From: Halovibrio variabilis
Lineage (GTDB): Bacteria > Pseudomonadota > Gammaproteobacteria > Pseudomonadales > Halomonadaceae
NCBI RefSeq assembly: GCF_007991175.1
Contig: NZ_BJXV01000004.1
Span: forward strand, 1-64,000
Reading direction: 5' to 3'
Length of the DNA stretch: 64,000 nt
Each line of letters starts with the position of its first letter. Within the stretch, counting starts at the first letter, position 1. Positions 30,335-44,226 of this stretch are shown here, piece after piece. The notes beneath the pieces were generated by a model. The model searched no databases, had not been told where the DNA came from, and saw only the letters and a program-made list of their open reading frames with translations. The translations under genes and the position numbers were made by a program.

Positions 30335-31189
30335 TTAACGCTTCAAGAGATGGTCTGCATGATAACGCAGATGGTCCTCAATGAACGAGGCGATAAAGAA
30401 GTAGCTGTGATCGTAGCCCGGTTGACGACGCAGCGTCAGCGGATGATCGTGCTCCTCACATACCGCCTCTAAGCGTTCTGGCTGTAGCTGTTCCTCAAGG
30501 AACTGATCGGCTTCGCCCTGATCGATAAACAGACGTTGACGCGAGGCACCGTTGGCCACCAATTCACAGGCATCGTACTGGCGCCAGCGCGACGTGTCCT
30601 CGCCCAAGTAAGCGCTGAAGGCTTGCTGGCCCCAGGGACAATTGATCGGATTGACCACCGGCGAAAACGCCGATACCGAACGGAAGCGCCCGGGGTGACG
30701 CAGCGCTAAAATCAACGCGCCGTGCCCACCCATGGAGTGGCCGCTGATGGATTCACGCCCATTGACCGGAAAATGCTGGCGCACGACGGAAGGCAGCTCC
30801 TCAATCACATAATCGTACATGCGGTAGTGGGCTTTCCAGGGTGACTCGGTCGCATTGACGTAAAACCCAGCGCCCGAGCCCAAATCAAAACGCTCATGCT
30901 CGCCGGGCAAATCGGTCCCCCGCGGACTGGTGTCAGGGCAAACAATGGCCACGCCTAGCTCAGCGGCAATACGGTGAGCCCCCGCTTTCTGCATGAAATT
31001 TTCGTCATTGCAGGTCAACCCTGAGAGCCACCAAAGCAAGGGTACGCGCTCGTTTTCCGCCTGGGGGGGCAAGTAAACAGCGAATATCATGTCGCAGTCC
31101 AACGCACGGGAGTAGTGGCGATAGCGCTTATGCCAGCCACCGAAACTACGGTTGGCGGACACCAGTTCTAGAGTTTCACTCATGCTCAT
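30335..31189 (-). CDS. fghA: S-formylglutathione hydrolase
   Basis: A 284-residue esterase-D-type alpha/beta hydrolase that releases formate and glutathione from S-formylglutathione, the second step of formaldehyde detoxification. The nucleophile elbow is ISGHSMGGHGALIL (Ser in GHSMGG); the acid is in IDQGEADQFL and the base His in PGYDHSYFFIASFIEDHL. LSGLTCNDENFMQKAG is the family's oxyanion-loop signature. It follows adhC on the same strand with a hairpin between them. Symbol frmB would be equivalent. Confidence 0.95.
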   Translation of the reverse strand: MSMSETLELVSANRSFGGWHKRYRHYSRALDCDMIFAVYLPPQAENERVPLLWWLSGLTCNDENFMQKAGAHRIAAELGVAIVCPDTSPRGTDLPGEHERFDLGSGAGFYVNATESPWKAHYRMYDYVIEELPSVVRQHFPVNGRESISGHSMGGHGALILALRHPGRFRSVSAFSPVVNPINCPWGQQAFSAYLGEDTSRWRQYDACELVANGASRQRLFIDQGEADQFLEEQLQPERLEAVCEEHDHPLTLRRQPGYDHSYFFIASFIEDHLRYHADHLLKR

Positions 31190-31213
31190 GGGCAGGTTCC
31201 TTTAAATGCAGCA

Positions 31214-31240
31214 AACGCGGCAGGTCTACCCTGCCGCGTT
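31214..31240. terminator. Hairpin between adhC and fghA (terminator or attenuator)
   Basis: AACGCGGCAGG (31214-31224) pairs perfectly with CCTGCCGCGTT (31230-31240), 11 bp with a 5-base loop. The T tract on the minus strand is only three, so it may partly terminate or stabilise the 3' end of adhC mRNA rather than end transcription. Confidence 0.5.
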
Positions 31241-31291
31241 TTAAACGTACTCACTATACTACTGAATAATGCAGCACCTAGTAATGCAAGA

Positions 31292-32410
<1,119 letters not shown>

Positions 32411-32443: not shown

Positions 32444-33427
32444 TTACTCGTCAGTGGTCACCGGGCCAAATTCAATCGGTAGCCAGCGATAGCCCCCGTC
32501 ATCTTTGCTGATATGGCCAATCCCAGGGAAGGGCATATGCGCGCCAGCAACCCAGTGCTTGTCTTCAACCGCGCTTTCGAGCACGCTTTCTCGCGTGCGA
32601 ATAGCCTGTTCGGGGTCAGAATCAAACTCAATGGCGACCGTAGGGTCTGCAAATTGAACACCGTAACTGTGGACCACGTCTCCCCATACCAACATGGCGT
32701 CATCATCGCTGTTGAGCATAAAGCTTGAGTGTCCGGCGGTGTGACCATGGGTATCCTGGGCAACGATACCCATTAGCACTTCATCACCAGCCGTGAAGGG
32801 GTTGAAACGATCAGCGTCCTGATAAGGCGCTACCGCATCTTGAGCCATGGTGAAGAAGGCTTGAGCAGATTCGGGTGCCGCTGCTGCACGCTCCTCATCC
32901 AACCAAAAATCAGCATCCGCCTGACTGGCACGCAGCTCAGCATTGGGATAAACCGCTTCGCCCTCTTCATTGGCCAAACCACACACGTGATCAGGATGCA
33001 AGTGGGTCATCAACACCGTATCGACATCGTCCGGCGAGTAACCAGAAGCACGCAGGTTACTCTCTACCTGTCCCAGTGAAGGACCAAAGCAGGCGGCGGA
33101 ACCGGCATCCACTAATACAAGGTTCTCGCCGGTATGTACAAGGAAGGCGTTTACCGCAGTTTGCATGCCGCTTTCCGCATCAATAAAAAGCGCATCCAGG
33201 TGGCGAAGAATTTCTTCTTGCTCCATGCCTTTTAGCAAGGAGGTATCAATAGCCGTATGACCGTCGTATAGCGCGGTTACCTCATACTCCCCGACCATCA
33301 TGCGAAACCAGCCCGGCGCTTGTTCCTGCTGCTGGTTGGGTAGCTCTGCCTGGGCACTAACAGCCCAACCTGCACTAATAGCGACTGCCAGTGCACTGTG
33401 CGACCACTGTGGTAAAGATATAGACAT
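32444..33427 (-). CDS. Exported metallo-beta-lactamase-fold hydrolase
   Basis: A 327-residue MBL-fold protein with a signal peptide (LAVAISAGWAVSAQA). Metal ligands: MTHLHPDHVCG (HxHxDH), the later GHTAGHSSFML and VWGDVVHS, giving a full dinuclear zinc site. Near the start VGEYEVTALYDGHTAIDTSL is typical of the periplasmic MBL proteins that sit beside glutathione-dependent aldehyde genes. Substrate unknown (lactone, thioester or quorum signal all possible). An open extension to 33505 is unlikely; GGAG 10 bp before ATG 33427 and the signal peptide fix the start. The divergent LysR probably controls it. Confidence 0.82.
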   Translation of the reverse strand: MSISLPQWSHSALAVAISAGWAVSAQAELPNQQQEQAPGWFRMMVGEYEVTALYDGHTAIDTSLLKGMEQEEILRHLDALFIDAESGMQTAVNAFLVHTGENLVLVDAGSAACFGPSLGQVESNLRASGYSPDDVDTVLMTHLHPDHVCGLANEEGEAVYPNAELRASQADADFWLDEERAAAAPESAQAFFTMAQDAVAPYQDADRFNPFTAGDEVLMGIVAQDTHGHTAGHSSFMLNSDDDAMLVWGDVVHSYGVQFADPTVAIEFDSDPEQAIRTRESVLESAVEDKHWVAGAHMPFPGIGHISKDDGGYRWLPIEFGPVTTDE

Positions 33428-33511
33428 AAGCAAAAGGCTCCATTGATAAGCTAACGATGTTAGCAGTGTAGGCCAGCTAGGCACTCTTGATAAACCGGGA
33501 TACACTCATAA

Positions 33512-34488: not shown

Positions 34489-35535
34489 TTACCGCTGGAG
34501 GACCCACGCCAGCATCAGCCGAGTTACCGCCAGCACGGACGTCATATGCGTGCGCTCATAGCCATGCGTGCTGTCAGTACCAAAACCCAGTAACGCCGTC
34601 CGCGTATCGTAGCCCGCATTTTTAACGGATGACCCATCACTGTGATAGTGGCGGAATACATCCCGCACATAGGGCAGCTCATGCGTCTGCGCCAGGATTT
34701 CCAGTTCGGCCAGCAGGCTCTGACTGTGCGGACCGGCGGCGTCCTTATATCCCAGAGTGGCATGAAACTCGCTTGAATGCTGGTTAGCCGCCACCGGCGC
34801 AATATCCACGCTGACCAGGTCATCCACCGACGGCGGCAATGATGTACCTGCTCCGTGACCGACTTCTTCAGCGTTGGTGAAGGCAAAACAGAAGGGAACC
34901 GTCGGTGCCAAATCGTTCTCTTTCAACAGGCTCAGACATTCCAGAGCACAGGCGATGGCCACCTTGTTGTCCAGGTAGCGGCTCACCAGAAATCCGGTTT
35001 GTGTAAATTCCGGCTCGACATCCAGCGCCACAATCTGGCCTGGCGCAATGCCGGCGGCCCGAGAGTCCTCAGCGGAATGCGTCACAATATCCGGGCGGAA
35101 CTCGATCTGCGCCCAGTTGACAGGCTGGGTATCCACGACCTCGCTCCAGGCATGGCCGGACGCATGCCTGGGCAAAATGGTGCCGCGGATACGCTCGCCG
35201 TTGTTGCACCATATTGTCGCACGAGCACCTTCGGCAAAACGGGCAGACCAGGTGCCCAATGGCGTCAGTTCGAGCCGCCCGGACGGCAGAATGTATTGCA
35301 CCATGGCACCCAAGGTGTCCATATGCGCGGCAATGGCGCGTTTTGGGTCGCCTTCGCCCAGGGTGACAATCAGATTGCCTCGAGCTGTAACGCTCTGACG
35401 TACCGGCCAGGGTGCCAGCTTATCCTGAAGGAGGCGTAGCATGCCATCGGTCGCCCCTACCGGGCTGTCTTCCAGCAACAGTACTCGCAGGGTCGCCTGC
35501 AAACGTTCAGGAAGAGGTAACGGTAATTCTTGCAT
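34489..35535 (-). CDS. M42-family peptidase, NAGGN-osmolyte-associated type
   Basis: A 348-residue cocatalytic metallopeptidase-fold protein. Metal ligands: HMDTLGA, YLDNK, the catalytic pair in FTNAEEVGHGAG, DIAP, and a final His in FGTDSTHGYERTH. Blocks such as LELTPLGTWSARFAEGAR, then GTILPRHASGHAWSEVVDTQ and RDVFRHYHSDGSSVKNAG match, from memory, the subgroup placed with genes for the osmolyte N-acetylglutaminylglutamine amide (NAGGN). Here the biosynthetic genes are absent and a peptide importer is present, so a catabolic role on a capped dipeptide is inferred. It has its own AGGAG site and follows the M20 gene by 71 bp. Confidence 0.82.
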   Translation of the reverse strand: MQELPLPLPERLQATLRVLLLEDSPVGATDGMLRLLQDKLAPWPVRQSVTARGNLIVTLGEGDPKRAIAAHMDTLGAMVQYILPSGRLELTPLGTWSARFAEGARATIWCNNGERIRGTILPRHASGHAWSEVVDTQPVNWAQIEFRPDIVTHSAEDSRAAGIAPGQIVALDVEPEFTQTGFLVSRYLDNKVAIACALECLSLLKENDLAPTVPFCFAFTNAEEVGHGAGTSLPPSVDDLVSVDIAPVAANQHSSEFHATLGYKDAAGPHSQSLLAELEILAQTHELPYVRDVFRHYHSDGSSVKNAGYDTRTALLGFGTDSTHGYERTHMTSVLAVTRLMLAWVLQR

Positions 35536-35606
35536 GGTTTGCTCCTGAATCTGGACGACGCTCTATCAACCTAGGTCCTTGGACAGAAGACCGTCTGCGA
35601 AGCAGA

Positions 35607-36854
35607 CTACCCCGGCCAGGATTCAATAAAGCGCCGAATGACCTGCCCGCTAGCCTCCAGATCTTCGGTGGTTACCGACTCATCCGGATGGTGGCTCAAG
35701 CCGTCTTTGCAGCGCATAAACAGCATGCCAATATTCGTCAGGTGCGCCATAGCCAGGCCGTCGTGGCCGGCGCCACTGAACAGACGACGGACCGGATACC
35801 CTGCGTCCTCGACCGCCTGTGCCAGCGCCCACTGAACGGATTCAGCACAGCGCACCTCATTCTGTTCATAGGTCGTCTCGACCTTCCATTGGCAGCCCGA
35901 ACCATCCAGCGCCCCGGCCAGTCGCTCCATCAAGTCCAGGCGCGCCCGACGCCGAATGGCAGAATCAGGCGATCGCAGCTCAATGCTCATCGTCACCTCC
36001 GCCGGAATCACATTGACCGCTCCAGGCGTGACGTCCAGTTGACCGACCACTCCGACCAAGTCATCCGTGCTATGGCACAGCTCATCGACGACCAGGACCG
36101 CACGTGCAGCGCGCACCAGTGCATCCTTGCGTAAATGCATGGGCGTCGTGCCGGCATGACCTGCCTTGCCCGTTATCGTCAATCGGTGGCGCTCAATACC
36201 CGTAATAGCCGTCACCACCCCCACCGGCAAGTTCTCTGCCTCCAGTATCGGCCCTTGTTCAATGTGCACCTCTACGTAACCGGACACCTGCTCGGGCTGT
36301 CGCGCCACTCGGTCGATCTGATCCGGATTCGAACCCAGTGCACGCAGCGCATCGGCCAGGGTCACGCCGTCCGAGTCAGTCACCGCCAGAAGATCGCGAT
36401 TGAAATTGCCAGCGATGGCCGAACTACCGATCAGAGTCGACGCAAAGCGCGTGCCTTCCTCATCGCAGAAGGCAACAAGTTCGACAGCCGTAGCAGGACG
36501 CCGACCTGACCGGTTGATTTCTGACAACACTGCCAACGGCAACAAAACGCCCATGATGCCGTCATACGCACCTCCCTGACGTACGGTATCCTGGTGTGAT
36601 CCGATCAGCAGGGTACGTGCGTCAAGCAATGAACCTTCCCAGCGCCCTACCAGGTTACCAGCGTCGTCCAGCCACACCGCATCGGCGCCGGCTTCCCGAT
36701 ACCAGTCTGCCAGTACGGGCAGAAGTGCCCTGTGTTCAGCCGAGCCCAGCACCCGGGTCACGCCTGGCCCTGGTTCGGAGTAAGTAGCTGCCGTCTTCAG
36801 CCAGGAACGTGATTGTATGCCGATACGGCATTCAGTGAATACAAGCTCTGTCAT
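35607..36854 (-). CDS. M20-family amidohydrolase (allantoate/N-carbamoyl amino acid hydrolase type)
   Basis: A 415-residue zinc hydrolase of the AllC/ureidopropionase/N-carbamoyl-L-amino-acid hydrolase group. Metal ligands: IGSHQDTVRQGGAYDGIMG, then FCDEEGTRF and YVEVHIEQGPILE, with FSGAGHDGLAMA near the C-terminus; the GKAGHAGTTPM segment is the dimerisation/substrate lid. These enzymes cut ureido or other C-N amide bonds of amino acid derivatives. ATGA overlap with the DUF1028 gene upstream shows coupling. The usual SGAGHDA reads SGAGHDG. Exact substrate unknown. Confidence 0.85.
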   Translation of the reverse strand: MTELVFTECRIGIQSRSWLKTAATYSEPGPGVTRVLGSAEHRALLPVLADWYREAGADAVWLDDAGNLVGRWEGSLLDARTLLIGSHQDTVRQGGAYDGIMGVLLPLAVLSEINRSGRRPATAVELVAFCDEEGTRFASTLIGSSAIAGNFNRDLLAVTDSDGVTLADALRALGSNPDQIDRVARQPEQVSGYVEVHIEQGPILEAENLPVGVVTAITGIERHRLTITGKAGHAGTTPMHLRKDALVRAARAVLVVDELCHSTDDLVGVVGQLDVTPGAVNVIPAEVTMSIELRSPDSAIRRRARLDLMERLAGALDGSGCQWKVETTYEQNEVRCAESVQWALAQAVEDAGYPVRRLFSGAGHDGLAMAHLTNIGMLFMRCKDGLSHHPDESVTTEDLEASGQVIRRFIESWPG

Positions 36855-37543
36855 GGATTCACTCCGTTCTCTTTGACATGGCCGGTCTTGGTCGGATGAG
36901 CTCGAGTGGGAACGCCCGCAAGGAAACTGAGAAAGGCTGGATCCTGTGTTTTTTCATACACTTGCCATAGTCGGCCGATGCAGTCTTCGTCCGCCCAGTC
37001 GACACGCAGATCCATGGGCGGACGGTCAAAAGCAGAAATAGTCACTGCGGCACTGCGCGTCCCACGGAAGTCACCGCCAGCGTCCTCTCCCGCCACCAAT
37101 GCCTTTATTAGGCGTTCTGCAAATGGGTACCCGGCGTGCGCCAGATAGGTTTCCATCATAATCTGCGGGATCGACCGATCCGCAAGCATATTCCCAGCTG
37201 TTGCCACGCCCTCACCGCAATGGTGCGCCACCTGCGCCAAGTTGGCGCTACCGGTATAGCCAGCCGTATTACCCTCCCGGTCACAGAGAATGAACTGGCG
37301 CTGCGACATCCCCGGGTCCTCTTCCAACAATTGTTCCCGCACGCGCGCCGCTGATACGCCGGTTGCCATCAGATCGAGGCCGCGTTCGCCATACAGCCAG
37401 TTGGTAAACGCTCCTTGGGTCGCCACGGCACCTGCCCCGGATCTTGCATGAGGAACAAAACCGCCCACGGCCACGCTGCCAGTCGCTGTAGCGGAACCAA
37501 AAGCACCGGTATCGGGGTCGCGGGCAATGATCGAATAGGTCAT
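36851..37543 (-). CDS. DUF1028 Ntn-hydrolase-fold protein
   Basis: A 230-residue DUF1028 protein. Begins MTYSIIARDPDTGAFGSATA, then GSVAVGGFVPHARSGAGAVA and TQGAFTNWLYGERGLDL, the family's conserved N-terminal half; a known structure of a member shows the Ntn-hydrolase fold, though no activity has been shown to my knowledge. VATAGNMLADRSIPQIMMET is the second conserved block. First gene of a three-gene minus-strand operon with the M20 and M42 hydrolases, divergent from the peptide importer, suggesting an amide-bond-directed role on the imported compound. Confidence 0.85.
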   Translation of the reverse strand: MTYSIIARDPDTGAFGSATATGSVAVGGFVPHARSGAGAVATQGAFTNWLYGERGLDLMATGVSAARVREQLLEEDPGMSQRQFILCDREGNTAGYTGSANLAQVAHHCGEGVATAGNMLADRSIPQIMMETYLAHAGYPFAERLIKALVAGEDAGGDFRGTRSAAVTISAFDRPPMDLRVDWADEDCIGRLWQVYEKTQDPAFLSFLAGVPTRAHPTKTGHVKENGVNP

Positions 37544-37622
37544 AGAGCGGACTCACTTTTCCTGATGGCCGGAGAATTATTCTGTTGCGGGACAACGTTT
37601 CTGACACTAATTTTAATTAAAG

Positions 37623-37726
37623 TTTATATTTTTACAGCGACAACATCCACCCTGCATGGTCAGGGACACAGTTAATAAATACGGCACATTTATCATTATA
37701 AATTAGTTGCGTCTATATTTTTATAG
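37623..37726. promoter_or_regulatory. Paired AT-rich motifs in the divergent promoter region
   Basis: TTTATATTTTTACAG (37623-37637) and TCTATATTTTTATAG (37712-37726) agree at 13 of 15 positions; the second contains the inverted repeat CTATA-tttt-TATAG. Both lie in the AT-rich 273-bp gap between the divergent hydrolase operon and the importer operon, so they may be operators for the cluster's FadR-type regulator. No firm -35/-10 pair was assigned. Confidence 0.4.
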
Positions 37727-37816
37727 TGATAATTGTAGTTCGACAGCTTCAGGTAGGTTGCGACATCGTCCGTGGTTGAAACGGAAAACCAACAAACCGA
37801 GACAAGAGGCATCACC

Positions 37817-39373
37817 GTGAAAAGAATAGTCAACCCCATCGCAGCGGTGGCGTTTGCCACGACCAGCACTTTTGCCATAGCACAAACGCCGCCCAACGTT
37901 CTGGTCGTCGGCCAGATCGCTGAACCCCAGTCTCTGGACCCGCATGCCGTGACCGCGGTGAACGACTTCCGGATACTGGTCAACCTATATGACGGCCTGG
38001 TTCGCTATGCCGACGGCACCCTCGAAGTCGAACCGTCCCTTGCCGAAAGCTGGGATATCAGCGACGACGGCACCGTCTATAAATTCCAGTTGCGTGATGA
38101 TGTGGAATTTCATGACGGCACCCCGTTCGATGCTGAAGCGGTTGTCTTCAACTTCGAGCGCATGCTGGACGAGGACCACCCCTATTATGACACCGGCCCG
38201 TTTCCGCTCGCTTTCTACTTCAGCCAGATAGATACCGTGGAAGCCACCGCTGAACACGAGGTCACCTTCACTCTTAACGAACCGTTCGCCCCCTTCCTCT
38301 CTAATCTGGCCTACCCCACCGGTCTGCTGATTTCTCCACAGGCCGTGCGTGAGCATGGTGAAAATATCGGCCGTCACCCTGTCGGCACCGGCGCCTACCA
38401 GTTCGAAGAGTGGGAAAGCAATTCACGCGTTGTGCTTACTCGCAACAACGACTACTGGGATGGCGCGCCGGATTTGGAAGCGGTTGTCTTCAGACCTATC
38501 ACTGATGCCAACACTCGGGTTGCCGAAATGCGATCCGGTGGCATTGATATGATGGTCGAAGTCCCGCCCGACAACGTCTCCATGTTCAAAGAAGATCCCA
38601 TGTTCCAGGTCTACGAGCAGGCAGGACCGCACGTCTGGTTTGTCATTCTCAACATGCGCAATGAACTGCTGCAGGACAAACGCGTGCGCCAAGCGCTGAA
38701 TTACGCTGTCGATAAAGAGGCACTCGTCAACGACGTGCTGCAGGGAACCGCCACCGTCGCCGACAGCCCGATTGCCCCGGCCTTCAACTGGGCCTATAAC
38801 GACGAGCTGGATGGTTATCCCTACAACCCGGACCGCGCACGTGAACTGCTGGAAGAAGCCGGCGCCGTGGGAGAGGAACTCACCTTCTATGTCACTGAAG
38901 GTGGTTCCGGCATGCTCGACCCCATCAATATGGGAACCGCTATACAGGCGAATCTTGAATCCGTGGGCCTGGACATCAGCATAGAAACCTATGAATGGAA
39001 TACCTTCCTCGGCCGCGTAAACGCAGGATTGGAAGGCGAAGCGGACATGGCAGAAATGGCTTGGATGACCAACGATCCAGACACTCTGCCCTTCCTGGCT
39101 TTGCGGTCTGACGCCATGCCAGACGAGGGTGGTTTCAACTCCGGTTACTACAGCAACGCGGATGTGGACAAACTGCTTGAGCAGGCCCGCACTTCCACCA
39201 GTCAGGAGGAACGGGCTCGGCTGTACAAGGAAGCACAGGCCATAATCGTGGAAGATGCTCCCTGGATCTTTGTCGCCAACTGGCAACAAAATGCCGTGGC
39301 AACTGACCGGGTTGAAAACTTCCATCTGCAGCCCTCTTTCCTGCTGCAGTTGAGGGACGTGCGCAAACCGTAA
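37817..39373 (+). CDS. Peptide-type ABC importer substrate-binding protein (SBP_bac_5)
   Basis: A 518-residue periplasmic binding protein of the DppA/OppA family. Signal peptide (AAVAFATTSTFAIA), mature start NVLVVGQIAEPQSLDPHAVT, then the signature AESWDISDDGTVYKFQLRDD and GTGAYQFEEW; NYAVDKEALVNDVLQGTATV marks the second lobe. It captures di/oligopeptides or similar compounds for the downstream permeases. GTG 37817 with AGAGG 7 bp before is preferred to an open extension to 37772, because it gives a clean signal peptide. First gene of the plus-strand importer operon. Confidence 0.88.
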   Translation: MKRIVNPIAAVAFATTSTFAIAQTPPNVLVVGQIAEPQSLDPHAVTAVNDFRILVNLYDGLVRYADGTLEVEPSLAESWDISDDGTVYKFQLRDDVEFHDGTPFDAEAVVFNFERMLDEDHPYYDTGPFPLAFYFSQIDTVEATAEHEVTFTLNEPFAPFLSNLAYPTGLLISPQAVREHGENIGRHPVGTGAYQFEEWESNSRVVLTRNNDYWDGAPDLEAVVFRPITDANTRVAEMRSGGIDMMVEVPPDNVSMFKEDPMFQVYEQAGPHVWFVILNMRNELLQDKRVRQALNYAVDKEALVNDVLQGTATVADSPIAPAFNWAYNDELDGYPYNPDRARELLEEAGAVGEELTFYVTEGGSGMLDPINMGTAIQANLESVGLDISIETYEWNTFLGRVNAGLEGEADMAEMAWMTNDPDTLPFLALRSDAMPDEGGFNSGYYSNADVDKLLEQARTSTSQEERARLYKEAQAIIVEDAPWIFVANWQQNAVATDRVENFHLQPSFLLQLRDVRKP

Positions 39374-39396
39374 CGGAGAACAACCAAGCTGTGCAT

Positions 39397-39537
39397 GCTG
39401 ACAGTAAGCTGCGCCTTTGGCCACGCACTGTGCATTGATCACGGTGCGTGGCCAGGGCCCCACGCCACCGCTGTCAGCAGTGAGCGATCAGCACGGTCAT
39501 ACCGACGGCCTTTCACCTTTGAGGGCGCTTCGCGCCC
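39397..39537 (+). promoter_or_regulatory. Hairpins between binding-protein and permease genes
   Basis: Outer arms GCTGACAG (39397-39404) and CTGTCAGC (39471-39478) enclose a perfect 10-bp stem GGCCACGCAC (39419-39428) with GTGCGTGGCC (39444-39453). A third hairpin, GGGCGC-TTC-GCGCCC, is at 39523-39537. None has a T tract. Such structures after binding-protein genes commonly stabilise the upstream mRNA and lower downstream expression. Confidence 0.55.
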
Positions 39538-39576
39538 GGTCTTAGCATCATAAATCCAGAACAAGAGTGTCGAACC

Positions 39577-40536
39577 ATGGCCACACCACTCTGGCGTTAC
39601 GTAGGCAAGCGACTGCTCCTACTGATCCCCGTGCTGTTCGGGCTCAGTCTTATCGTCTTTTTCATTATGGCCCTGATTCCGGGCGACCCGGCTCAGGCCA
39701 TACTGGGCTCTTATGCCACTCCGGAAAACGTGGCCCGGTTGAACGCCCAACTGGGATTGGACAAGTCCCTGCCGCAACAATACCTGACTTGGCTCGGCAA
39801 TATCTTCCAAGGCGATTTCGGGCGCTCCTACAACCAAAACCGGGAAGTCATCAGTATTATCGCTGAACGTTTCGGTGCCACTCTGATTCTCGCGGGCACA
39901 GCACTCGTGCTGTGTTCCATTTTTGGTCTGCTAGCCGGCATCATTTCCGCCAGCCGCCAGTATGGCCTGGTCGACAAGGCCATCACGCTGATTGTGCTAA
40001 TCGGCATCTCGATGCCAGCTTTCTGGCTCGGCCTGCTGATGATCATGCTGTTTGCCGTCGAATGGCGACTGCTGCCAGCCAGTGGCATGTTTTCCATCTA
40101 TGGAGGCGGGGATCTTCCCGACCTGATACGCCATCTGATTTTGCCGGCCGGCACGCTGGCGTTTATCGCTACCGGTGTAATCGCCCGTCTGACCCGCGCC
40201 AGCATGCTGGAGGTTCTGCGGCAGGACTTCATTCGCACAGCGCGTGCCAAAGGTGTGAATGAACGACGGGTTATCTACCGGCATGCCTTCAAAGCGGCGC
40301 TGGTGTCCATTGTCCCTGTTATTGGCATTCAGGCAGGTTTTGTACTCGGCGGTGCTGTCTACATAGAAACCGTGTTCCAGTGGCCCGGCATGGGCAGTAT
40401 GTTGGTCAATGCCATTTCCACTCGAGATCTGCTGCTGGTGCAGGGTGGGGTCCTGGTCATCGCCGCAGCCTATGTGCTGATTAACCTGGCCGCAGACGTG
40501 GTGCAATTCATTCTGGACCCAAGGGTGACGGCATGA
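39577..40536 (+). CDS. Peptide-type ABC permease (DppB family)
   Basis: A 319-residue inner-membrane permease with six helices. DppB hallmarks: RLLLLIPVLFGLSLIVFFIM at the N-terminus, GDPAQAILGSYATPENVARL, the coupling loop MLEVLRQDFIRTARAKGVNE (EAA-type), and FQWPGMGSMLVNAISTRDLL near the C-terminus. Pairs with the permease half of the next gene. ATGA overlap with that gene's start at 40533. Confidence 0.92.
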   Translation: MATPLWRYVGKRLLLLIPVLFGLSLIVFFIMALIPGDPAQAILGSYATPENVARLNAQLGLDKSLPQQYLTWLGNIFQGDFGRSYNQNREVISIIAERFGATLILAGTALVLCSIFGLLAGIISASRQYGLVDKAITLIVLIGISMPAFWLGLLMIMLFAVEWRLLPASGMFSIYGGGDLPDLIRHLILPAGTLAFIATGVIARLTRASMLEVLRQDFIRTARAKGVNERRVIYRHAFKAALVSIVPVIGIQAGFVLGGAVYIETVFQWPGMGSMLVNAISTRDLLLVQGGVLVIAAAYVLINLAADVVQFILDPRVTA

Positions 40537-42464
40537 CCACCAATGCTCAGGCTCCTCTGCTTAGCCGCCTCTTCGGACGACGTCACAGCCGAACCTCCCC
40601 CCTGGCCCTGCTGGTGCGTAACCGCTTGGCTGCAGCCGGCCTAGTGGTGTTGTGTCTTGTGGTTTTCATCGCTCTCATTACGCCCTGGTTACCGCTGCCT
40701 GATCCGAACGCCACCCAACCCAGTGACCGATTGATTCCCCCTTTCACTACTGGCCACTGGCTGGGTACGGACCAGCTTGGCCGTGACATTCTATCACGCC
40801 TGCTCTGGGGAACCCGGGTCTCCCTCGTGGTGGGCATTGCCGCCACCCTGGTCGCGGCTCTCATCGGCTCCACCATCGGCATTGTAGCCGGCTATTTCGG
40901 CAAGCGTGTGGACAGCACGCTGATGCGCGGCATCGACATGATGATGGCCTTCCCCTACATCCTGCTGGCACTGGCCATTGTTGCCGTGCTCGGGCCGGGC
41001 CTGCTGAACGCACTCTATGCCATTGCCATTGTGAACATACCGTTCTTTGCGCGTAATGTACGCGGCGTGACAGTTACCCTGCGTAACCGGGAGTTCGTCG
41101 ACGCCGCGCTGCTGTCCGGCAAGAATCATTTTCTGATACTGGTTACAGAAATTCTGCCCAACGTCCTGCCCGTCATTGTCATCACCATGTCCACCACCGT
41201 GGGTTGGATGATCCTGGAAACAGCCGGTCTCTCCTTTCTGGGACTAGGCGCTCAGCCGCCTCAGGCAGACCTGGGCTCAATGCTGGGTGAAGGCAGACGC
41301 CTGATCTCGACGGCGCCCTTTGTTTCGACCGTGCCGGGGGTCATGATCTTCATCCTGGTCATGAGCATCAACCTTCTAGGTGACGGGATACGCGATGCGC
41401 TGGACCCGCGTCTCAAGGCCGGTGCCCTGCGCCGCCCGGCCGCGAGAACCAGAACCTCGGTCGAAGCGCGCCAAGCTTCGCAGTACGAGCAGAGGGGGGT
41501 CTTGGACGTGCGCGCACTGCGCACCGAGTTTCACCTGGACAACCAGGTCCACCGGGCGGTTAACGGTCCGACTTTCTCAATAGAAGCTGGTGAATGCTTG
41601 GGCATCATAGGCGAATCAGGCTCAGGCAAGTCGGTCACCGCCATGTCCCTGCTCGGTCTGGTGGCCTCCCCCCCAGGCATGATCATGGGTGGCCAAGTCA
41701 ATTACCGTGACACTAACCTGCTGGGCATTTCAGACAATGATCTGCGCCGTTACCGCGGCGGTGAACTCGCCTACATTTTTCAGGACCCGCTGTCCACACT
41801 GCACCCTCTCTTTACTGTGGGCGACCAACTGGTCGAAGCCATGCGATCACACTATGCAATTTCCTATACCGACGCTTGGAAGAAAGCGGTGACCCTACTG
41901 GAAGAAGTACGCATACCAAATGCCGCTAACCGAGCGCATTCCTATCCGCACCAGTTGTCAGGTGGCATGCGTCAACGTGTGAGTATCGCCATGGCGCTGG
42001 CCAATGAACCGAAACTGATCATTGCCGATGAACCGACTACAGCACTGGATGTTACCGTGCAGGCACAGATACTGGCGCTTTTGAACCGCCTGCGTGACGA
42101 CAAGGGGGCCAGCCTGATGTTCATCACGCATGATTTCGGCGTGGTGCGCCAGGTGTGCCATCGGGTTGCGGTCATGTACGCCGGCGAAATTGTCGAGATC
42201 GGCCCGGTGGAAGAGATTCTGGCGCAACCAGCTCATCCCTATACCAGACGCCTGATCAGCTGTGTGCCCGACGTCGAAAGAAAGACCGGTAAGCTGGAAG
42301 AGATCCCGGGGCTGCCCCCCCAAGTCAACAATCTGCCCGAGGGCTGCAAGTTTGCCGACCGCTGTGACATGGTCGCAGACCAGTGCCGCCAGGCGCCCAT
42401 TGAACTGAAAACCATGAACGAACGGCACCAAGCACGCTGCATTTTCGCCAAGGAGGTAGTATGA
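40533..42464 (+). CDS. Natural fusion of DppC-type permease and DppD-type ATPase
   Basis: A 643-residue protein in one uninterrupted frame. Residues 1-about 295 are a DppC permease (GTDQLGRDILSRLLWGTRVS, then ETAGLSFLGLGAQPPQADLG, ending GDGIRDALDPRLK); about 296-320 is a basic Ala/Arg linker; about 321-643 is a DppD ATPase with Walker A GESGSGKSV, signature LSGGMRQRVSIAMAL, Walker B LIIADEPTTALDVT and the C-terminal cysteine-bearing oligopeptide/dipeptide domain (GCKFADRCDMVADQC). The permease and ATPase are usually separate genes. Continuity without frameshift argues for a real fusion. Confidence 0.92.
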   Translation: MTTNAQAPLLSRLFGRRHSRTSPLALLVRNRLAAAGLVVLCLVVFIALITPWLPLPDPNATQPSDRLIPPFTTGHWLGTDQLGRDILSRLLWGTRVSLVVGIAATLVAALIGSTIGIVAGYFGKRVDSTLMRGIDMMMAFPYILLALAIVAVLGPGLLNALYAIAIVNIPFFARNVRGVTVTLRNREFVDAALLSGKNHFLILVTEILPNVLPVIVITMSTTVGWMILETAGLSFLGLGAQPPQADLGSMLGEGRRLISTAPFVSTVPGVMIFILVMSINLLGDGIRDALDPRLKAGALRRPAARTRTSVEARQASQYEQRGVLDVRALRTEFHLDNQVHRAVNGPTFSIEAGECLGIIGESGSGKSVTAMSLLGLVASPPGMIMGGQVNYRDTNLLGISDNDLRRYRGGELAYIFQDPLSTLHPLFTVGDQLVEAMRSHYAISYTDAWKKAVTLLEEVRIPNAANRAHSYPHQLSGGMRQRVSIAMALANEPKLIIADEPTTALDVTVQAQILALLNRLRDDKGASLMFITHDFGVVRQVCHRVAVMYAGEIVEIGPVEEILAQPAHPYTRRLISCVPDVERKTGKLEEIPGLPPQVNNLPEGCKFADRCDMVADQCRQAPIELKTMNERHQARCIFAKEVV

Positions 42465-43459
42465 CCGCACTACCGACAGGCTCAACGATGCAGGCCAGCA
42501 ACCATCTGGCCGTCTCAGACCTGGTCAAACAGTTTGGCGGCGGCCGTTCGCTGATCGGCCGTGAACTGCCCGCCGTGCATGCCGTGCGCAAACTGGCTTT
42601 CCATGTAGAAGCCGGAGAAATCCTTGGCATCGTGGGTGAATCCGGCTGTGGCAAGTCCACGGTGGCCCGCATGCTGGTTGGGCTGGACGCACCGACATCA
42701 GGCCGCATTGAGCTGGGCGGCAGCCCACTGGCTGAGCCCGGCAAACCCATCCATCGGCGGGCGCTCGCCAACCGGATCCAATATGTGTTTCAGGACCCGC
42801 TGAGTTCCCTCAACCCACGCAAGACCATACGGCAAATCCTCACCGCCCCCTTGGTCTATCTGAAGCACATGGACAAGGAACAGATCGAAACCCGCCTGAA
42901 GGAACTCATGGAACAGGTCAACCTACGAGCGGAGTTTCTCAGTCGTTACCCGCACGAGTTTTCGGGTGGCCAGGCACAACGTATCGGTGTGGCGCGGGCG
43001 CTGGCCGCCGAACCCGAAGTTCTGGTGCTTGACGAACCGGTCTCGGCGTTGGATGTCTCGGTACAGGCCCAGGTGCTGAACCTACTACAAGACCTGCGTA
43101 AGCGCTTCAATCTGACTTATGTGTTCATCAGTCACGACTTGGGTGTAGTGCGTAATCTGTGTGACCGCGTCGCCGTCATGTACTTCGGGCGCATTGTCGA
43201 GACAGCTGACACCGATACCCTGTTCAGCAACCCACAACACCATTACACCCGCCTGCTACTGGACTCAGTGCCGGGTACAGGTAAGCAGCTCAGTGTAGGT
43301 GACCAGGCCAACGCCGAACTGCCCGACCCGTTGAAGCCGCCGCCGGGCTGTGCTTTTGCCGCACGCTGCCCGGCAGCAACTGACCAGTGCCGACAGACAG
43401 ATCCCGAACTGAAGGGAACCGACGCGCATGCCGTGGCGTGTTATCATCCGGAAAAATGA
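42461..43459 (+). CDS. Peptide-type ABC ATPase (DppF family)
   Basis: A 332-residue ATPase, second of the pair driving peptide import. Walker A GESGCGKST, FQDPLSSLNPRKT (Q loop), signature FSGGQAQRIGVARAL, Walker B LVLDEPVSALDVSVQ, H loop ISHDLGVV and the C-terminal CAFAARCPAATDQC cysteine region, which in some family members binds a 4Fe-4S cluster. Overlaps the fused permease-ATPase gene by 4 bp (ATGA). The regulator gene follows after 32 bp. Confidence 0.93.
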   Translation: MTALPTGSTMQASNHLAVSDLVKQFGGGRSLIGRELPAVHAVRKLAFHVEAGEILGIVGESGCGKSTVARMLVGLDAPTSGRIELGGSPLAEPGKPIHRRALANRIQYVFQDPLSSLNPRKTIRQILTAPLVYLKHMDKEQIETRLKELMEQVNLRAEFLSRYPHEFSGGQAQRIGVARALAAEPEVLVLDEPVSALDVSVQAQVLNLLQDLRKRFNLTYVFISHDLGVVRNLCDRVAVMYFGRIVETADTDTLFSNPQHHYTRLLLDSVPGTGKQLSVGDQANAELPDPLKPPPGCAFAARCPAATDQCRQTDPELKGTDAHAVACYHPEK

Positions 43460-43491
43460 TAAGGTATCTGCCTCTTTCCAAAGGAGTTTTC

Positions 43492-44226
43492 ATGCCCGGC
43501 AAAACCACCAAACGATCGGATGAAGTCATCGGCCATCTGAAAGACTGGATTGTCGAGCAAGGTCTGCGCCCAGGCGACCGCCTGCCTCAGGAGAAAGCTC
43601 TGTTGGACCAGTTTCATGCCAGCAAAGGTACGATCCGGGAAGCCCTGAAGGGGCTGGAGGCGCAGGGACTGATTGTCACCCGAACTGGGCCCGGCGGCGG
43701 CGCCTTTGTCTCGGATATGCCGCCGGACCACATGACGTCCCTGCTGACGAACTATTTCTACTTCAAGGATATTTCAATCCACGACATCTACCAGATGCGC
43801 ATCCAGCTGGAGCCCGAGCTGGCCGCCAGTGTCGTGGGGCTCCTTACCGACGACGACTTTCGGCGCCTGCAGACGACCATGACCATCTATCATCAGCCGC
43901 CGGAAACCCAGGACGAAGAACACCGCATGCGCTTAGCTGAGCTAAGTTTCCACGAAGTCTTGGTGACGCTCTGCCCGAACCCGCTTTTGGCCTTTACCTG
44001 TCACTTCCTGCTCGGGTTGCTGAAAAATCTGCGGCTCTGCCATGACATTTACGACTTGCCCAACCCGGCCCTCTGGGAAACCGGCAAGCGTTACCAGATG
44101 GAGTTGCTGGAAGCCTTCAAGCGGGAAGACAAGACCGAAGTCCGCACCATTATGCGGGAACATATGCGCCGTGCTGAATCTCTGATGGAAGCACAAGAGA
44201 CCATCATCCTCGATCGGGTTCTTTAG
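43492..44226 (+). CDS. GntR/FadR-family regulator of the peptide cluster
   Basis: A 244-residue regulator. N-terminal winged helix: DEVIGHLKDWIVEQGLRPGD, then RLPQEKALLDQFHASKGTIR and EALKGLEAQGLIVTRTGPGG; C-terminal all-helical FCD domain (YQMRIQLEPELAASVVGLL, SFHEVLVTLCPNPLLA, MREHMRRAE) that binds a small carboxylic or amino acid effector, often via a metal. ATG 43492 has AAAGGAG at good spacing; an open extension to 43387 overlaps the ATPase and lacks support. Last gene of the importer operon and the probable local repressor. Confidence 0.88.
   Translation: MPGKTTKRSDEVIGHLKDWIVEQGLRPGDRLPQEKALLDQFHASKGTIREALKGLEAQGLIVTRTGPGGGAFVSDMPPDHMTSLLTNYFYFKDISIHDIYQMRIQLEPELAASVVGLLTDDDFRRLQTTMTIYHQPPETQDEEHRMRLAELSFHEVLVTLCPNPLLAFTCHFLLGLLKNLRLCHDIYDLPNPALWETGKRYQMELLEAFKREDKTEVRTIMREHMRRAESLMEAQETIILDRVL

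What the first reader, a model, noticed from the sequence alone, without database searches (positions are those of the whole stretch)
34489..44226. Divergent amide-hydrolase/peptide-importer cluster, possibly for capped-peptide osmolytes
Three hydrolase-type genes (DUF1028 Ntn-fold, M20 ureidohydrolase-like, M42 peptidase) in one minus-strand operon face a complete Dpp-type ABC importer plus FadR-family regulator. The M42 protein matches, from memory, the subgroup normally found with NAGGN (N-acetylglutaminylglutamine amide) biosynthesis, yet biosynthetic genes are missing and an importer is present. I infer a scavenging route that imports and strips a capped or ureido dipeptide, possibly an osmolyte released by other bacteria, in a halophile. 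I know of no described system with this gene set.
Basis: partly seen in the sequence, partly recalled or inferred. Interest (0 to 1): 0.72.

Follow-up and report, generated by a model that had tools for sequence, protein, structure and literature searches.

The report
Scavenging cassette for capped-glutamine osmolyte NAGGN
This cluster looks like a self-contained kit for importing and digesting NAGGN, a protective compound that other bacteria make against salt stress; the same importer and control site also sit beside the genes that make NAGGN in other bacteria, so the idea can be tested directly.

Summary
The genes are real. The 8-gene cluster recurs in the same order in Saccharospirillum and Natronospirillum.

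The importer does carry it. Its binding protein (69-70% identical), permeases, ATPases and FadR regulator lie directly upstream of asnO-ngg, the NAGGN biosynthesis genes, in Sinorhizobium meliloti, Shinella and one further genome. A palindrome ATTTATNNNNATAAAT precedes the importer in both settings; its only exact copy in the window genome is at 37688-37703. NAGGN-type M42 genes lie beside this importer in several separate lineages. The binding protein lacks DppA's residues for free peptide ends.

In 15 sampled importer genomes, an adjacent DUF1028 gene and asnO exclude each other (10 and 5), a pattern that tracks lineage.

Best reading: a FadR-controlled cassette for NAGGN uptake and catabolism in a non-producer, with DUF1028 as a threonine Ntn amidase. 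The ligand and all three enzyme activities are untested. The rival ligand is carbamoyl-glutamine amide.

The parts
34489..35535 (-). M42 metallopeptidase; clade next to the NAGGN-trio M42s; predicted to split the Gln-Gln bond or remove acetyl-Gln
   Evidence: TIGR03106 352.1 bits, cut-off 397.75; own clade 100/100 beside a 97/83 clade with the trio M42s; H71, D189, E223, E224, D244, H324 invariant in 27 sequences (their role as M42 metal and catalytic residues is recalled)
35607..36854 (-). M20 hydantoinase/carbamoylase-family amidase; predicted N-acyl/N-carbamoyl amino acid amidohydrolase
   Evidence: TIGR01879 366 bits against 204; PRK09290.2-5 470.3 against 479; nearest solved relative 3n5f N-carbamoyl-L-amino acid hydrolase, 294 bits; H87, D98, E132/E133, H197, H233, N281, R294, H388 invariant in 15 (roles recalled)
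36851..37543 (-). DUF1028, threonine Ntn-hydrolase fold; predicted amidase
37688..37703 (.). palindromic operator ATTTATCATTATAAAT, predicted FadR-family site
   Evidence: only exact match to ATTTATNNNNATAAAT in the 3.73-Mb genome; sites within 1 mismatch upstream of the importer in 27 of 36 importer loci, 0 to 0.05 expected per locus; overlaps a promoter-like match
37719..37734 (.). second, weaker operator-like site (2 mismatches), 31 bp from the first
   Evidence: read from sequence; tandem sites 29-32 bp apart in L007-L011, L049, L174, L210-L212, L178
37772..39373 (+). SBP_bac_5 substrate-binding protein; lacks DppA D408 and R355 equivalents
   Evidence: PF00496 347 bits; alignment; model pLDDT 84.0 and PDB matches
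39577..40536 (+). ABC permease B
   Evidence: PF00528, PF19300
40533..42464 (+). fused ABC permease C and ATPase D
   Evidence: PF00528, PF00005, PF08352, PF12911
42461..43459 (+). ABC ATPase F
   Evidence: PF00005, PF08352
43492..44226 (+). FadR/FCD-family regulator (listed ORF from 43387; start moved)
   Evidence: PF00392, PF07729; AAAGGAG before ATG 43492

Best explanation
A FadR-controlled uptake and catabolism cassette for N-acetylglutaminylglutamine amide (NAGGN) in a bacterium that does not make it. The ABC importer brings in the uncharged, doubly capped dipeptide. Three cytoplasmic hydrolases then dismantle it. DUF1028, a threonine Ntn amidase, removes the terminal amide, either from NAGGN or from Gln-NH2. 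M42 splits the Gln-Gln bond. M20, which needs a free alpha-carboxylate, releases acetate from N-acetylglutamine. The products are glutamine, ammonium and acetate. The FadR-like regulator represses both operons at the central palindrome until the ligand or a product appears. Shown: gene content, order, conservation, linkage of the same importer, regulator and operator to asnO-ngg elsewhere, predicted fold and Thr2 of DUF1028, and loss of DppA's end-binding residues. Inferred: the ligand, every enzyme reaction and their order, that FadR binds the palindrome, and the sense of regulation.
For: (1) The same importer block (SBP 69-70% identical, permB, fused permC/ATPD, ATPF, FadR) lies directly upstream of asnO-ngg and downstream of a NAGGN M42 in S. 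meliloti (two other genes between M42 and SBP), Shinella HZN7 and G927. (2) TIGR03106-family M42 genes lie beside it, with no asnO in the stretch, in G971 (530 bits), a Klebsiella plasmid (457), Agrobacterium salinitolerans (438) and Qingshengfaniella (349, under cut-off), besides the window clade; the chromosomes of the plasmid hosts were not searched. Parsimony needs at least 6 changes of M42 adjacency on the SBP tree. (3) The palindrome lies upstream of the importer in producer and non-producer settings (4 of 4 asnO loci, two of them S. meliloti) and its only exact copy in the window genome is here. (4) DppA D408 becomes Asn in 33 of 34 readable SBPs and Ala in one; R355's loop EGGSGM has no Arg or Lys in 34 of 34. 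Two uncharged osmolytes with masked amino and carboxyl groups are listed in a review, NAGGN and carbamoyl-glutamine amide (PMC1224877 passages). (5) Of 15 sampled importer genomes, the 10 with adjacent DUF1028 lack asnO and the 5 without have it. (6) asnO and ngg over cut-off are absent from the window genome. (7) Others have proposed that the peptidase of NAGGN clusters balances the NAGGN pool (PMC5563000 passages on Frankia).
Against: The M42 is under the NAGGN cut-off and outside the clade with the NAGGN-linked M42s. The asnO/DUF1028 exclusion is not independent of lineage: 1 independent pair on supported branches, 3 on all branches; 8 of the 10 DUF1028 genomes bear one family code. Six importer loci have DUF1028 but neither M42 nor M20 in the stretch (L178, L181, L196, L199, L202, L204), so the enzyme set varies. 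The operator is missing in 9 of 36 importer loci, 4 of which (L195, L200, L181, L204) have an adjacent FadR. Exact palindromes also lie away from the importer in G885 and in L007's genome, G927 has none, and in G241 the reversed control pattern occurs more often (2) than the real one (1). SBPs of other ligands also lack D408 and R355, as GsiB does. No activity has been measured for any part.
Confidence: 0.58

Rival explanations
1. [quoted passage not shown] DUF1028 removes the 1-amide and M20, as an N-carbamoyl-L-amino acid hydrolase, releases glutamine, ammonium and CO2. M42 is an add-on for NAGGN in some lineages.
For: The M20's nearest solved relative is an N-carbamoyl-L-amino acid hydrolase, and its second-best NCBIfam hit is an N-carbamyl-L-glutamate amidohydrolase, under cut-off (374.7 against 520). 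DUF1028 with M20 and no M42 is seen in L175, L176, L177 and L188. The compound is a known halophile osmolyte with masked charges (PMC1224877 passages).
Against: The direct gene linkage of the importer is to NAGGN biosynthesis genes and NAGGN-type M42. The compound is reported from Ectothiorhodospira marismortui, and no genes for making it were sought.
Confidence: 0.15
2. A general importer and peptidase set for some other modified peptide or amide (glutathione-like, isopeptide or opine-like), whose neighbourhood to NAGGN genes in rhizobia is incidental.
For: The SBP's best structural match is glutathione-binding GbpA 3m8u, and GsiB is its best NCBIfam hit though far under cut-off (249.5 against 594). 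DUF1028 also occurs beside unrelated Dpp-type importers (L180, L182, L185, L187; SBP 23-31% identical).
Against: The SBP is strongly conserved across producers and non-producers with the same loop motifs, the operator is shared, and adjacency to NAGGN-type M42 changed at least 6 times on the SBP tree.
Confidence: 0.2
3. Import of NAGGN serves mainly osmoprotection, as ready-made compatible solute, and the hydrolases only trim the pool when salt falls.
For: Some NAGGN producers keep the importer and an M42 in the biosynthesis operon, as if for recapture; pool balancing by the peptidase has been proposed for Frankia (PMC5563000 passages).
Against: In the window type the importer faces three hydrolases across one shared operator, which fits catabolism better.
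Confidence: 0.07

Closest known systems
NAGGN trio asnO-ngg-M42 (TIGR03104/TIGR03103/TIGR03106)
   Same: Related M42; in S. meliloti, Shinella and G927 the same importer, FadR and operator are attached to it.
   Different: No asnO or ngg over cut-off here; M42 in a neighbouring clade; DUF1028 and M20 added.
Dpp/Opp/Gsi ABC importers (E. coli DppA, GsiB)
   Same: Same SBP_bac_5 and B, C, D, F parts.
   Different: C and D fused; D408 and R355 of DppA not kept.
DUF1028 protein SPO2555 (2imh)
   Same: Same fold, TM 0.92 for the model, 34-36% identity.
   Different: Solved and filed as a DUF1028 protein without a named function.
Ectoine uptake and catabolism operons (Ehu/Eut, Uch/Doe; recalled)
   Same: Works alike: osmolyte importer beside hydrolases and a regulator.
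   Different: Different substrate and enzymes; comparison recalled, not tested.

Membership tests
NAGGN biosynthesis system | asnO amidotransferase above TIGR03104 cut-off | tested here: not met
   Best hit in own genome 129.6 against 570.1
NAGGN biosynthesis system | ngg synthetase above TIGR03103 cut-off | tested here: not met
   Best hit 197.6, partial, against 569
NAGGN-system M42 peptidase | TIGR03106 above cut-off and inside the clade with the trio M42s | tested here: not met
   352.1 against 397.75; own 100/100 clade beside a 97/83 clade with the trio M42s
Importer family attached to NAGGN operons | SBP, permB, permC/ATPD fusion, ATPF, FadR in this order, SBP of one family | tested here: met
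   the SBP tree's root is weak
Importer family attached to NAGGN operons | Palindromic operator upstream of SBP | tested here: met
Importer family attached to NAGGN operons | Transports NAGGN | not testable with these tools
   No binding or uptake data; the link is by gene neighbourhood
DppA-type dipeptide importer | Asp408 (amine) and Arg355 (carboxylate) of the SBP | tested here: not met
   Asn and no basic residue in the loop; residue roles recalled, the same pair is mutated in 8z1z, DppA R383D+D436R in precursor numbering
Hydantoinase/carbamoylase amidases | TIGR01879 above cut-off | tested here: met
   366.4 against 204
Allantoate amidohydrolase PRK09290.2-5 | NF006775 above cut-off | tested here: not met
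   470.3 against 479
Ntn hydrolases | Ntn fold with N-terminal Thr after Met removal | tested here: met
   (predicted model and conservation; Met removal inferred)
Ntn hydrolases | Amide hydrolysis | not testable with these tools
   No assay

The most novel reading that the evidence does not exclude
A widespread, undescribed trade in NAGGN: producers recapture it with this importer and non-producers eat it with the same importer plus DUF1028, which would be the first function known to me for this family. NAGGN-type M42 has joined the importer several times. Other carriers appear in the same role: a YfcC/DcuC-type carrier with DUF1028, M20, FadR and the same operator in the window's own genus, and possibly a TonB receptor plus OPT transporter beside M42 in Alteromonadaceae. 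Some copies are on plasmids.
Probability: 0.48. Interest if true: 0.78.

Novelty: new variant of a known kind. Interest (0 to 1): 0.68.

Why it matters
NAGGN is a known salt-stress osmolyte with known biosynthesis genes, but I found no described importer or breakdown route. That rests on the searches, whose lists were partly capped (for example 40 of 106 papers listed), and on passages of seven papers; Sagot 2010 itself was not readable, and most subscription papers are not held. If right, this gives NAGGN a fate in the environment, a function for DUF1028, a ligand class for an importer family carried by S. meliloti and relatives, and a probable role for the M42 gene that accompanies NAGGN synthesis. 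One small compound, one binding protein and three enzymes would settle it.

Tried and rejected
An ordinary Dpp system for free dipeptides is disfavoured, because the SBP lacks DppA's end-binding residues.

An allantoin/ureide pathway was considered because of the M20. It misses the allantoate amidohydrolase cut-off it comes nearest to, and no other allantoin gene was seen among the eleven window proteins scanned; the rest of the genome was not searched for them.

'M42 proves NAGGN' fails: it is under cut-off and outside the trio clade. In that tree 61 of 87 collected M42s were used (26 rows thinned by me), and the label 'importer_AsnO' that I gave to L195 was wrong: its stretch holds an M42 7.8 kb from the importer but no asnO.

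Independent statistical support for the DUF1028/asnO exclusion failed: a Fisher test on 15 genomes gives p = 0.0003, but only 1 to 3 phylogenetically independent pairs exist, and 8 of the 10 DUF1028 genomes bear family code f94. In one search, of 28 handles, at least four Saccharospirillum/Natronospirillum handles look by size and place like the same genomes twice (for example G529 and L007's genome), so I count about 7 species there, not 11.

Background asnO rate: 9 of 80 phylum genomes over cut-off against 5 of 16 importer genomes; I do not lean on this difference.

Horizontal origin is likely by distribution (only the window among 275 family genomes), but GC is unremarkable (cluster 57.9%, window 55.9%). 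A search for FadR-type operator patterns that I recalled (TNGTNNNACNA-like) in 12 intergenic stretches found none. Literature searches for DUF1028 and for recalled SMb locus tags gave nothing. In the SBP tree the E. coli outgroup branches are extreme (lengths 8.7 to 10), so its root is not used; one search used a tree without them.
Full report
WHAT IS THERE. DUF1028, M20 and M42 form one minus-strand unit, with DUF1028 and M20 overlapping by 4 bp. Facing them are an SBP_bac_5 binding protein, permease B, a fused permease C/ATPase D, ATPase F and a FadR/FCD regulator. The regulator most likely starts at 43492 behind AAAGGAG. The 228-bp intergenic stretch between the two units has 38.6% GC in a 57.9% GC cluster.

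CONSERVATION. A protein search with the M42 shows 26 near-full-length relatives at 57-91% identity and then a drop to 48% and below, where records named 'NAGGN system M42' begin (120 of 2348 hits listed; two partial proteins at 59 and 64% sit lower in the list). In named genomes the close group falls in Saccharospirillum and Natronospirillum (6 of 67 loci). Five of those six loci carry all eight genes in the same order and orientation; the sixth (L049) is cut by its contig. A further genome of the same order, L206, is also complete. Of 275 genomes of the window's own family only the window has this M42 type; the next best match is 42% identical. So the cluster is a foreign-looking single occurrence in its family, though its GC is ordinary.

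THE M42 TEST. The M42 scores 352.1 bits against a cut-off of 397.75. In a tree of 61 M42s (thinned by me from 87) the window, Saccharospirillum and Natronospirillum M42s are a 100/100 clade. Beside it is a clade (97/83) that holds every M42 in the tree whose stretch has asnO, along with others. The two together are separated from Chloroflexota, Armatimonadota and Bacillota M42s with 100/100 support, midpoint-rooted (asnO found in 36 of 62 stretches). The argument for NAGGN has to come from elsewhere.

THE IMPORTER LINK. It comes from the importer. A tblastn of the SBP against plasmids gave 88 records, 63 of them Sinorhizobium. In S. meliloti RCAM1750 the order is M42, two unrelated genes on the other strand, SBP, permB, permC/ATPD, ATPF, FadR, asnO, ngg. 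In Shinella HZN7 it is M42, SBP, permB, permC/ATPD, ATPF, FadR, asnO, ngg without interruption. G927 has the same order. These SBPs are 69-70% identical to the window's. Around the same importer elsewhere are DUF1028 alone, DUF1028 with M20, DUF1028 with M42 (Klebsiella and Enterobacter plasmids, Agrobacterium salinitolerans, Qingshengfaniella; the last is annotated as M20 but is TIGR03106-like at 349 bits), all three (window type, G971), another carbamoylase-family hydrolase (Nitratireductor, G885, G932), or none of these (L198, L205, L214, L215, L216). Of 36 importer loci that I examined, 18 have an M42 in the stretch (with for L197), but these loci were partly chosen through M42 and include near-duplicates (two S. 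meliloti; the Klebsiella and Enterobacter plasmids). In the 398-genome phylum sample 16 genomes have the importer, and 3 of these 16 (window, G927, G971) have M42 beside it. On the SBP tree M42 adjacency needs at least 6 changes. G971 is telling: its M42 is over the NAGGN cut-off (530 bits), yet the genome has neither asnO nor ngg over cut-off. Its SBP gene shows an internal stop, so that copy may be broken or misread.

THE OPERATOR. In 10 of 12 DUF1028-SBP gaps compared (window and 11 relatives) the best inverted repeats include ATTTATNNNNATAAAT; L008 and L206 do not show it with that spacing but have one-mismatch forms. Allowing one mismatch, it is found upstream of the importer in 27 of 36 importer loci, with 0 to 0.05 expected per locus from local shuffles. 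It is also in 2 of 2 loci of the window's genus where a YfcC/DcuC-type carrier replaces the ABC importer; there it lies inside the longest reading frame of the carrier, so it is upstream only if the carrier starts at a later Met, as I assume. All 4 asnO-linked loci examined have it, 134-136 bp before the SBP hit. The 5 importer loci without a recognisable adjacent FadR (L198, L205, L214, L215, L216) lack it, and so do four with a FadR (L181, L195, L200, L204). In whole genomes the exact pattern occurs once in the window genome (37688-37703), once in G241, twice in G971 and twice in L009's Natronospirillum genome, all at the cluster. It occurs once at and once away from the cluster in L007's genome, once away from the importer in G885, and not at all in G927, whose site has one mismatch. 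The reversed control pattern gave hits in G241 only, 2 per strand, which is more than the real pattern there. A second weaker site lies 31 bp on (37719-37734), and tandem sites 29-32 bp apart recur. The site overlaps a promoter-like match. That FadR binds it is inferred from conservation and position.

THE BINDING PROTEIN. E. coli DppA holds the free amino end with Asp408 and the carboxyl end with Arg355 (recalled; the same pair, numbered D436 and R383 in the precursor, is what was mutated in entry 8z1z). In the alignment Asp408 is Asn in 33 of 34 readable family SBPs and Ala in L212; the Arg355 loop reads EGGSGM with no basic residue in 34 of 34 (the L174 row was unreadable there). The same motifs hold in producer and non-producer SBPs. 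This argues against free dipeptides and fits a ligand with masked ends. [quoted passage not shown] It does not prove NAGGN: GsiB also lacks these residues, and the SBP model's nearest solved structure is a glutathione-binding protein.

PRODUCERS AND SCAVENGERS. Of the 15 sampled importer genomes besides the window, the 10 with DUF1028 next to the importer (G862, G920, G931, G936, G942, G950, G956, G971, G981, G987) lack asnO over cut-off, and the 5 without it (G730, G885, G927, G932, G1003) have asnO, though only G927 has it next to the importer. The window and the Saccharospirillum and Natronospirillum genomes of L007-L011, L049 and L206 also have DUF1028 and no asnO over cut-off. This is what recapture by producers and catabolism by non-producers would give. 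It is not statistically independent of lineage: only 1 to 3 independent pairs exist.

VERDICT. Papers: passages of PMC8070244, PMC12442406, PMC1224877, PMC12491435, PMC7564387, PMC8146288 and PMC5563000 were read; others were seen only in search listings. Sagot et al. 2010 was not readable and is known to me through PMC8070244 and recall. In those passages and in the searches named under Why it matters I found no described NAGGN importer or catabolic cluster; a paper that is not held may exist.

Noticed in passing
L019:1057-9002 and L050:5458-12806 (Alteromonas alba, Aliiglaciecola): A NAGGN-type M42 lies between a FecR/TonB-receptor unit (an ECF sigma factor precedes it in L019) and an OPT oligopeptide transporter, with no asnO in the stretch; possibly another scavenging route.
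   Followed up: partly
L172:8199-12482 and L173:8436-12794 (same genus code as the window): A YfcC/DcuC-type carrier takes the place of the ABC importer beside DUF1028, M20 and FadR, with the same palindrome (one mismatch in L173) near the carrier's start.
   Followed up: partly
L210:8421-18273 and L211:6215-15902 (Klebsiella michiganensis and Enterobacter hormaechei plasmids): Importer, FadR and NAGGN-type M42 near IS26 copies; DUF1028 annotated only 432 and 552 bp long close to IS26, so perhaps truncated.
   Followed up: no
L194, L200, L203: A different carbamoylase-family hydrolase (28-30% identical to the window M20) sits divergent from the same importer; G885 and G932 carry asnO on another contig.
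   Followed up: partly
L174:11794-13386 (G971): The SBP gene of this otherwise complete cluster shows one internal TGA; whether it is a real break or a sequencing error was not examined.
   Followed up: no
window 32444-33505: A metallo-beta-lactamase-fold protein, nearest to AidB-type lactonase but under its cut-off (209 against 360).
   Followed up: no
window 30335-32401: By eye an AdhC-like alcohol dehydrogenase and an S-formylglutathione-hydrolase-like protein side by side, probably formaldehyde detoxification (recalled naming; no family scan run).
   Followed up: no
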